Source: Puccinia triticina (lineage: Eukaryota > Basidiomycota > Pucciniomycetes > Pucciniales > Pucciniaceae). From it: a stretch of DNA of 64,000 bases. The translations under genes were made by a program, and so were the position numbers. Below, piece after piece: positions 33,825-35,172 of this stretch (position 1 is its first letter; each line of letters opens with the position of its first letter). The stretch spans positions 3,100,001-3,164,000 of the forward strand of contig NC_070562.1 in the NCBI RefSeq assembly GCF_026914185.1, given 5' to 3'. The notes under the pieces are model-generated. The model saw only the letters and a list, made by a program, of their open reading frames with translations, was not told the DNA's origin and ran no database searches.

Positions 33825-34276
33825 CCGGTCAAAGAGGTTTTGTAACCTCTTCAACTGGAAGGCCTTCCTTCCAGTCGAGTCAAAGAGGTTCTGTAACCCC
33901 TTCAACCAGAAGGATTCCTTCCAGTTGAAGAGGTTACAAAACCTCTTTGACCAGAAGGAAGGCCTTCCCAGTCCTTCTGGTTGTCGTGGCAGCCGCCACC
34001 TGCCCAAAAAAGAGCGGGTACCTGCTTGATTTCTCCCAGAAATCCAGCATCCGCACCCAAACACGCACACACTGGCAGGTACCCGCCGACCATGGGCGGG
34101 TACCCGCCAGCGGATAGCAGGTACCTGCAACGAGTTTGTCGGGGCCATCTCTAGTTTTGATTTACTTGGAGGAGGTAGATGGGGTCCTGCCAATCCCTGC
34201 GCCCCTTTCGTCGAATAAGTGGACTACCAAAGCAACTGGAGACTGGTTCAATTTGTAGAGACTGTAAAATGAAGAT

Positions 34277-34361
34277 GTGTCTGGTGAGAGTCGAACTCAC
34301 GACCTCAGCTATGCTGAGACACATACTAGAGTGCTGCCTTTACCAACTAGGCTACAGACGC
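34277..34361 (-). tRNA. tRNA-like sequence in the TRIM 3' LTR
   Basis: On the minus strand GCGTCTG pairs with CAGACAC (one mismatch) as acceptor stem. GCCT/AGGC is the D stem with a GTTGG loop. GTGAG/CTCAC is the T stem with a TTCGACT loop. CTCAGC/GCTGAG could be a long variable arm, making it class II-like. The A box (TAGCCTAGTTGG) and B box (AGTTCGACTCT) are intact. The anticodon arm is poor: CAC/GTG around an 8-base loop. It may be a decayed tRNA kept as a Pol III promoter, not a working tRNA. Confidence 0.5.
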
Positions 34362-34468
34362 TTGTGGCTGCCAGCTGGGTGGTTGGTTGGTAGTGCTCAT
34401 GGGTCGATCCGACAGCCCTCCATACTGTGGTGATACATCATGGTAGCAGACTAACAGACAACTCAACA

Positions 34469-34477
34469 CCCCCCCTT
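34469..34477 (-). other. Polypurine tract of the TRIM
   Basis: AAGGGGGGG on the minus strand directly abuts the 3' LTR start (TGTTGAG). This is the expected place for second-strand priming. Confidence 0.75.
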
Positions 34478-34658
34478 GCTACATGATGGGAAGTGGGGAT
34501 TGACCCCAAGAGAGAGTGGGAATGAGACCCAGGAAAGATGATCAGTGTAGGGATTGAACCCGTGATCTAGATGTAGGCTTATAGGGGTTTGCGTGGTCTT
34601 ACAAGTAAGCATTCACAAATTCATCAAGTCTCTATTGTAAGCAAGTAGCGCTCAGGTA

Positions 34659-34675
34659 GCTCTGGGCTCATAACC
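34659..34675 (-). other. Primer-binding site of the TRIM (initiator tRNA-Met half)
   Basis: GGTTATGAGCCCAGAGC starts at the first base after the 5' LTR. The complement GGGCTCATAACC is the invariant anticodon stem-loop of initiator tRNA-Met. Priming from an internal tRNA fragment is known for copia-type elements. Confidence 0.75.
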
Positions 34676-34698
34676 TGTAGAGACTGTAAAATGAAGAT

Positions 34699-34783
34699 GT
34701 GTCTGGTGAGAGTCGAACTCACGACCTCAGCTATGCTGAGACACATACTAGAGTGCTGCCTTTACCAACTAGGCTACAGACGC
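34699..34783 (-). tRNA. tRNA-like sequence in the TRIM 5' LTR
   Basis: Identical to the copy at 34277-34361, 422 bp downstream. Being in the 5' LTR, its A and B boxes could drive Pol III transcription into the element. Confidence 0.5.
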
Positions 34784-34987
34784 TTGTGGCTGCCAGCTGG
34801 GTGGTTGGTTGGTAGTGCTCATGGGTCGATCCGACAGCCCTCCATACTGTGGTGATACATCATGGTAGCAGACTAACAGACAACTCAACACAATTGTGTT
34901 TATAAAGGCATGTATTTCTATCACAGGTTATTAGAAAGCTTCAAGTAGTTTTGTTTTCTTGAAAGATGCTACAAATAAACTGGGCTT

Positions 34988-35172
34988 CTTTTGTATCATC
35001 TGAAGTACGGTCCAAGTTTGCTTGGATCACAGGTGGCTCATATATGGCACGCCAAAGATCTTGGAGTGCACCGAGGCTCATTTCGTATCATCTGAAGTAC
35101 GATCCAAGTTTGCTTGAATCACAGGTGGTTCATATATGGCACGCCAAAGATCTTGGAGTGCACCGAGGTTCA
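34988..35172. repeat. 92-bp tandem duplication near the MULE right end
   Basis: Two adjacent copies share TCATCTGAAGTACG, CCAAGTTTGCTTG and GGCACGCCAAAGATCTTGG. Both belong to the inner part of the MULE right terminal region. Confidence 0.8.

What the first reader, a model, noticed from the sequence alone, without database searches (positions are those of the whole stretch)
34254..34890. A miniature LTR retrotransposon carrying a tRNA-like gene in each LTR
Two 215-bp LTRs look identical, with TG...CA ends, a CAATT duplication, an initiator-tRNA-Met half PBS and a G-rich PPT. They enclose only 207 bp. Inside each LTR is an 85-nt stretch with acceptor, D and T arms, A box TAGCCTAGTTGG and B box AGTTCGACTCT. 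The closest known design is the Cassandra TRIM, whose LTRs carry 5S rRNA. A tRNA-like unit in that role would mean Pol III control of a TRIM by a different gene class. I know of no described rust element like this, but I could not search.
Basis: partly seen in the sequence, partly recalled or inferred. Interest (0 to 1): 0.88.

Follow-up and report, generated by a model that had tools for sequence, protein, structure and literature searches.

The report
Known tRNA-bearing miniature retrotransposon, Helenus type
This is a real, very short jumping element, most likely of the wheat leaf rust fungus, whose two ends each carry a tRNA-like sequence; the type was published in 2024 as Helenus, but hybrids found here between it and larger Copia elements point to the machinery that moves it.

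Summary
At 34254-34890 lies a complete 637-bp TRIM on the minus strand: two identical 215-bp LTRs, CAATT duplication, half-initiator-tRNA primer site, G-rich PPT, 207-bp non-coding middle, and in each LTR a tRNA-like sequence accepted by Rfam (42.9 bits). Its genome (122.8 Mb, 18 contigs) holds 547 LTR tags and 133 internal tags. Its largest P. triticina family, LTR-1_PTrit (529 LTRs, 144 internals), is very probably this one; letters could not be compared. New here, as far as searched: at four loci a Copia-type LTR is joined to the Helenus internal at the primer site and followed by a Helenus LTR; the three with both outer ends read have matching 5-bp target duplications. A parent Copia with open pol shares PBS, PPT and TSD length. 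This is what recombination between Copia and Helenus cDNAs during reverse transcription would leave, so they probably share particles. Pol III use remains inferred, and the boxes are not clearly conserved within the family. CpG decay has hit the B box in 42 of 100 sampled LTRs.

The parts
34249..34253 (.). target-site duplication CAATT (left)
   Evidence: read directly; 20 of 22 complete copies in hand have a matching 5-bp duplication
34254..34468 (-). 3' LTR (215 bp; TGTTGAG...CTCTACA on the minus strand)
34266..34269 (-). TTTT, the only run of four T in the LTR+internal unit (possible weak Pol III stop)
   Evidence: not more than chance (86.5% of shuffles have 0 or 1 such runs)
34276..34361 (-). 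tRNA-like sequence, LTR positions 108-193, with a hairpin in place of the variable arm (my reading)
   Evidence: RF00005 42.9 bits; ARAGORN
34287..34297 (-). B box AGTTCGACTCT
34343..34354 (-). A box TAGCCTAGTTGG
34469..34480 (-). polypurine tract AGCAAGGGGGGG, same 12 letters as in the Copia element at C11:450510-455984
34469..34675 (-). internal region, 207 bp, non-coding
34664..34675 (-). primer-binding site GGTTATGAGCCC (complement of the iMet anticodon arm; tRNA sequence recalled), same 12 letters as in the Copia element on C11
   Evidence: primer class as in most fungal Helenus, PMC10886601
34676..34890 (-). 5' LTR (215 bp, identical to the 3' LTR)
34698..34783 (-). tRNA-like sequence of the 5' LTR
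34709..34719 (-). B box of the 5' LTR
34765..34776 (-). A box of the 5' LTR
34891..34895 (.). target-site duplication CAATT (right)

Best explanation
It is a recently inserted copy of a Helenus-type TRIM, most likely the family LTR-1_PTrit of Puccinia triticina. It codes for nothing. The A and B boxes of the tRNA-like part of the 5' LTR probably start a short Pol III transcript (inferred) that serves as genomic RNA. Copia-superfamily elements with the same or nearly the same PBS and PPT package, reverse-transcribe and integrate it (supported by hybrids; not shown directly). Reverse transcription starts from a half iMet tRNA at the PBS, the PPT starts the second strand, and integrase leaves a 5-bp duplication. 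Inside shared particles Copia plus-strand strong-stop DNA sometimes transfers through the PBS onto Helenus minus-strand DNA, giving Copia-LTR / Helenus-internal / Helenus-LTR hybrids (inferred from their structure).
For: Anatomy and TSD. 547 LTR and 133 internal tags against 529 and 144 published for LTR-1_PTrit; internal 207 bp here against 198 + 12 bp shared with Copia-9_PGr in the paper; anticodon-loop iMet PBS and 5-bp TSD as in most fungal Helenus. 20 of 22 complete copies in hand have matching 5-bp TSDs, 8 of 22 have no LTR difference. Copia on C11:450510-455984: LTRs of 353 and 367 bp, TSD ATCTT, PBS GGTTATGAGCCC, PPT AGCAAGGGGGGG; 1063 codons open with rve, SH3 and RVT_2 in Copia order. 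Hybrids: L044 with TSD CAATT, and L039; L089 with TSD GGAAT; L045 with TSD TGCTG around a composite whose outer Copia LTRs are 99.0% identical.
Against: No transcript data: Pol III use is not shown. The tRNA-like part is not clearly more conserved than the rest of the LTR (non-CpG substitutions per site per copy: U3 0.0085, tRNA-like 0.0074, A box 0.0045, B box 0.0139; 56 LTRs). In 42 of the first 100 listed LTRs (of 427) the CG of the B box is lost. The single T4 is not more than chance. Repbase was not available for a letter-by-letter comparison, and the primer of LTR-1_PTrit itself was not stated in the parts of the paper seen. Patterns allowing at most 3 mismatches found no Copia here that shares about 200 bp of internal sequence as Copia-9_PGr does; a diverged one could be missed. 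Hybrids are rare: four against 133 internal tags. The parent of L089 was not read.
Confidence: 0.88

Rival explanations
1. The TRIM is transcribed by Pol II from U3, and the tRNA-like part is a passenger from a SINE or a processing or packaging signal of the RNA, not a promoter.
For: No clear excess conservation of the boxes within this family; B box CG lost in 42 of the first 100 listed LTRs.
Against: The A box fits the recalled consensus at 12 of 12 places; Kojima reports conservation around the boxes across families; the analogous Cassandra is stated there to be transcribed from its Pol III promoter.
Confidence: 0.25
2. The Copia/Helenus hybrids come from ectopic DNA recombination or assembly errors, so they say nothing about shared particles.
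For: Reads were not available; L040 and L079 are broken or complex and show no matching TSD; the far end of L039 was not found; L044 and L089 share one internal variant (G172T) found in none of the other 34 distinct internals in hand, so full independence is not proven.
Against: Three of the three hybrids whose two outer ends were read have matching 5-bp TSDs (L044, L089, L045). The joint lies at the LTR end or within the first 9-12 nt of the PBS, the only stretch shared there with the parents read, too short for ordinary homologous recombination. L089 is about 7% diverged from the window copy, so it is probably old. Four different Copia LTR types are involved.
Confidence: 0.1
3. Two real tRNA genes, or a tRNA-derived SINE in a tandem duplication, that merely look like LTRs.
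For: RF00005 and ARAGORN matches.
Against: TG...CA ends, PBS, PPT and TSDs; hundreds of tags and 40 whole-length matches with the same boundaries; unresolved anticodon, and 42.9 bits against up to 64.5 for the best-scoring tRNA found in the genome.
Confidence: 0.01

Closest known systems
Helenus (Kojima 2024, PMC10886601), family LTR-1_PTrit
   Same: TRIM, tRNA-like sequence in each LTR, anticodon-loop PBS of the fungal class, PPT, 5-bp TSD, internal of about 210 bp, similar copy number
   Different: No difference of substance found, but letters could not be compared; B box here begins AGTTC rather than the GGTTC that the paper calls conserved. Hybrids with Copia are not mentioned in the parts seen, and words beginning 'chimer' do not occur in its text.
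Cassandra TRIM of plants
   Same: small RNA gene sequence (Pol III promoter) in each LTR, no coding
   Different: 5S rRNA, not tRNA; plants
Copia elements of the same genome (C11:450510-455984; LTR pair C10:5284544/5289651)
   Same: PBS (12 nt on C11, 11 nt on C10), PPT, TGTTGAG start of LTR; 5-bp TSD read on C11
   Different: 353- and 367-bp LTRs on C11, in which the Helenus LTR finds no match at E up to 1; open pol with rve and RVT_2
tRNA-derived SINEs (SINE2)
   Same: tRNA-like part with A and B boxes
   Different: no LTR, PBS or PPT; moved by non-LTR elements (recalled)

Membership tests
TRIM | under 1 kb, two LTRs, PBS and PPT, no coding | tested here: met
   637 bp
Helenus | tRNA-derived sequence inside each LTR | tested here: met
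   RF00005 above gathering score in both LTRs
Helenus | fungal members: 5-bp TSD | tested here: met
   CAATT here; 20 of 22 complete copies in hand
Helenus | most fungal members: PBS to a tRNA anticodon loop, mostly iMet | tested here: met
   GGTTATGAGCCC next to the 5' LTR; tRNA sequence recalled; paper section
Helenus | box A TRGCY...YGG, box B GGTTC | tested here: inconclusive
   box A met (TAGCC...TGG); box B is AGTTC, one letter off
LTR-1_PTrit | copy numbers 529 LTRs and 144 internals | tested here: met
   approximately: 547 and 133 tags, by another method and in an unnamed assembly
LTR-1_PTrit | sequence identity to the Repbase entry | not testable with these tools
   Repbase was not among the tools, and no look-ups in supplementary files were allowed
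TRIMp3 | working Pol III promoter | not testable with these tools
   no RNA data; the paper too calls it unvalidated for Helenus
Cassandra | 5S rRNA sequence in the LTR | tested here: not met
   no 5S match in the window above gathering score
Copia-mobilised element | shared PBS/PPT with, and hybrids with, a Copia of the same genome | tested here: met
   mobilisation itself not observed

The most novel reading that the evidence does not exclude
One Pol III-type TRIM is carried by at least four Copia lineages at once: hybrids with four different Copia LTR types, joined at the common primer site, record intermolecular strand transfer between co-packaged cDNAs. If so, a shared half-tRNA PBS plus PPT, without LTR homology, is enough to hijack foreign particles, and fossil hybrids give a direct genome-wide record of which helper moved which TRIM, which could be sought for Cassandra too, whose helper Kojima calls unknown.
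Probability: 0.55. Interest if true: 0.6.

Novelty: already known. Interest (0 to 1): 0.4.

Why it matters
The element type, and very probably the family, are in print, so the finding as given is not new. What the re-examination adds is physical evidence for a step that the paper inferred from sequence likeness: which autonomous elements reverse-transcribe and integrate a rust Helenus. The same hybrid search could name helpers for other TRIMs. It also agrees with the paper's warning that most predicted tRNA-Thr-AGT genes of P. triticina (481 of 492 in its Table 2) are transposon LTRs.

Tried and rejected
Copia partner sharing about 198 bp of internal sequence, as Copia-9_PGr does: sought with patterns that exclude TRIM copies, on the 3' side (3 places, but the reversed control gave 2; the three are damaged Helenus copies) and on the 5' side (7 and 6 places, four of them in both lists). 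No such partner was found; the hybrids turned up instead. Of the 7 places, three are hybrids (L039, L044, L045), one a hybrid fragment (L040), one an older complete Helenus (L041, TSD CATAT, 13 LTR differences) and two damaged Helenus (L042, L043). L053 and L054 are truncated or damaged Helenus. The opposite hybrid, Helenus LTR then Copia internal, was sought: 3 places, control 0; one is L039, the other two (2 and 3 mismatches) were not examined.

Pol III terminator argument: one T4 run in the unit, but 86.5% of 5000 dinucleotide shuffles have 0 or 1, so it carries no weight. Box conservation within the family: no clear excess; those 56 LTRs are biased to close copies. Second tRNA-like sequence in the internal region: no Rfam match up to E 1 there; besides the two tRNA matches the list held two sub-threshold plastid 5'UTR matches on the other strand of the LTRs, taken as chance. 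LTR pairs around 30 of the 57 tRNA matches (L009-L038): none found within the 3-kb loci, so no other Helenus family is claimed. The 3' LTR of the L039 composite was not in the guessed stretch; L090, beyond the Gypsy insertion of L040, holds no Helenus or Copia internal match. Of 34 distinct loci with a near-full internal, 12 were incomplete and left out of the TSD count. In one search variant counts included loci fetched twice; one search repeats them without duplicates (36 internals) and replaces them.

Papers: PMC10886601 abstract, part 1 of 6 of the text, sections 3.5, 3.6, 3.8, 4, tables and passages; PMC10627818 and PMC4717578 passages only; others as search listings. 'Not found in print' for the hybrids rests on searches, the word search and the passages. 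A reference list there names a 2014 paper on pear whose title reports frequent inter-element recombination of Cassandra; it is not held, so I could not see whether it describes similar hybrids.

Full report
What is there. The window copy is a complete 637-bp element on the minus strand. Two 215-bp LTRs (34254-34468 and 34676-34890) are identical and flanked by CAATT on both sides. Next to the 5' LTR is GGTTATGAGCCC, the complement of the initiator tRNA anticodon arm (tRNA sequence recalled); next to the 3' LTR is AGCAAGGGGGGG. At LTR positions 108-193 lies a tRNA-like sequence that reaches 42.9 bits with Rfam RF00005 (cut-off 29). ARAGORN finds it too but cannot name an anticodon. By my reading of the letters it has a long variable arm and an eight-base anticodon loop TCTAGTAT, which could be taken for Thr-AGT or a CTA suppressor; such labels are common for rust Helenus copies in GtRNAdb. 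The best tRNA match found in this genome scores 64.5 bits, so this one looks degenerate.

The genome. P. triticina haplotypes have 18 chromosomes and 121.6-123.9 Mb (passages of PMC10627818), so I take it to be P. triticina; no tool named it.

The family. The whole-element search returned 43 matches, 40 of them over all 637 bp at 99-100% (40 of 565 candidates scored). A 30-mer of the LTR end occurs 547 times with up to 3 mismatches, reversed control 0; a 30-mer of the internal region occurs 133 times, control 0. Many LTRs must therefore be solo or truncated (inference). Among 34 distinct loci in hand with a near-full internal, 22 are complete; 20 of 22 have identical 5-bp flanks, and 8 of 22 have no difference between their LTRs, so the family moved recently. 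These loci are biased to close copies. The two without matching flanks are an inverted dimer (L078) and a copy abutting a Copia LTR (L079).

It is already published. Kojima 2024 (PMC10886601; abstract, part 1 of 6 of the text, sections 3.5, 3.6, 3.8, 4, tables and passages seen) defined Helenus as TRIMs with a tRNA-derived sequence in the LTRs and found 113 families in Pucciniales. LTR-1_PTrit is the largest family of the two fungi counted, with 529 LTRs and 144 internals; its internal corresponds to 198 + 12 bp of Copia-9_PGr. The window element agrees in copy number and internal length, and in primer class and TSD length with fungal Helenus as a group. I could not compare letters with Repbase, and the primer of LTR-1_PTrit itself was not stated in the parts seen.

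Hybrids with Copia. A pattern that excludes the Helenus LTR end before the primer site gave 7 places. Three hold a different, Copia-type LTR in front of a complete Helenus internal (98.6%) and a Helenus LTR: L044 (C14:1447000-1447617), L039 (C1) and L045 (C16). A fourth, L089 (C11, about 440638-441401, minus), came and was fetched; it is about 93% identical to the window copy. In L044 and L089 the whole hybrid is flanked by CAATT and GGAAT. L045 is a composite: Copia LTR, Helenus internal, Helenus LTR positions 1-209, six unmatched bases, then Copia gag-pol and a second Copia LTR; the outer LTRs are 99.0% identical and flanked by TGCTG. Its junction into gag shows no homology to the related copy on C1. 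L039 continues after its Helenus LTR into GGTTATGAGTCCC and a frame that resembles the gag start of the Copia copies on C10 and C11 (36.7% and 35.0% over 60 aa, E 2.8e-14 and 9.8e-14). L040 has a Copia-type LTR and about 80 bp of Helenus internal before what I read as a Gypsy insertion. L079 is a complete Helenus lying against the end of a Copia LTR and followed by Copia pol. Hybrids are rare: four against 133 internal tags. In the opposite order, Helenus LTR then a non-Helenus internal, a pattern gave 3 places (control 0): L039 and two unexamined ones.

The parents. The LTR of L044 matches LTR pairs 5.0-5.1 kb apart on C11, C10 and C3. The C11 element has LTRs of 353 and 367 bp (the longer with a 14-bp duplication), TSD ATCTT, the same 12-nt PBS, after which it differs from Helenus, and the same 12-nt PPT. 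A fetched stretch of 3201 bases holds one frame open for 1063 codons with gag_pre-integrs (below its cut-off), rve, SH3_retrovirus and RVT_2, the Copia order. The LTR of L045 has its own pairs 4.9-5.0 kb apart, for example C1:7219595/7224532 and C18:2527204/2532177; these two start their internal with GGTTATGAGTCCC, so 9 letters are shared with Helenus before a difference. The parent of L089 was not read. The LTRs of C11 (standing for L044), L039, L045 and L089 are 79-83% identical to each other at aligned columns, indels aside, and BLAST aligns them only in part: four related but different types.

Mechanism. Shown: shared PBS (9-12 nt) and PPT, hybrids with the joint at the LTR end or in that PBS, and integration-type duplications around three of the three hybrids whose outer ends were both read. 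Inferred: Copia plus-strand strong-stop DNA transferred through the PBS to Helenus minus-strand DNA in one particle; this predicts Copia LTR, Helenus internal, Helenus LTR. L039 and L045 need at least one further switch. Among 36 distinct internals, L039 and L045 carry two variants common in ordinary copies (T33C in 14, A130G in 18), L044 has two private ones, and L044 and L089 share G172T with no other; so most events look separate, but independence of L044 and L089 is not proven. Not shown: Pol III transcription, and shared particles as such.

Boxes and decay. Over 56 LTRs in hand the commonest changes are C-to-T at CpG sites (76 of 177 substitutions), and one hot spot is the CG of the B box. 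Genome-wide, 427 LTRs match the B-box stretch with Y-R at that CG; of the first 100 listed 58 keep CG, 31 have TG, 10 CA and 1 TA (counted). Decay of methylated CpG may thus silence the promoter (inference). Outside CpG the boxes are not clearly more conserved than the LTR: A box 0.0045, B box 0.0139, U3 0.0085 changes per site per copy.

Verdict. The Copia hybrids are the part that I found in no paper searched (one possibly relevant paper on Cassandra in pear was not held).

Noticed in passing
L086 (C11:450480-451300), L039, L045, L089, L079: Copia-type LTRs of five types carry an internal direct repeat of about 44-54 bp around a spacer that begins with GT in 5 of 5 (GTACAG, GTTAGT, GTTAGT, GTAGGT, GTCAGT), and the second repeat ends in CAG in 5 of 5, like an intron. 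The LTR of hybrid L044 lacks spacer plus one repeat, as after splicing or a shifted strand transfer; L040 seems to as well.
   Followed up: partly
LTR positions 176-177 of the family (34292-34293 in the 3' LTR): The CG in the Pol III B box is lost in 42 of the first 100 listed copies (of 427), mostly C-to-T, as by decay of methylated CpG.
   Followed up: partly
C5:1245286-1246343 and L078: Tandem and inverted dimers of the element.
   Followed up: no
window 34983-35166: 92-bp tandem duplication (93% alike) next to the element, followed by further TTGGAGTGCA-type repeats.
   Followed up: no
window 34013-34128: Cluster of near-palindromic GCRGGTACCYGC units; a similar stretch is seen at the end of L090.
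   Followed up: no
L046 (C1:4802930-4812800): A Gypsy-type element (RVT_1, RNase H, integrase domains on the minus strand) sits inside a Copia-LTR/Helenus-internal fragment; its TSD was not checked.
   Followed up: partly
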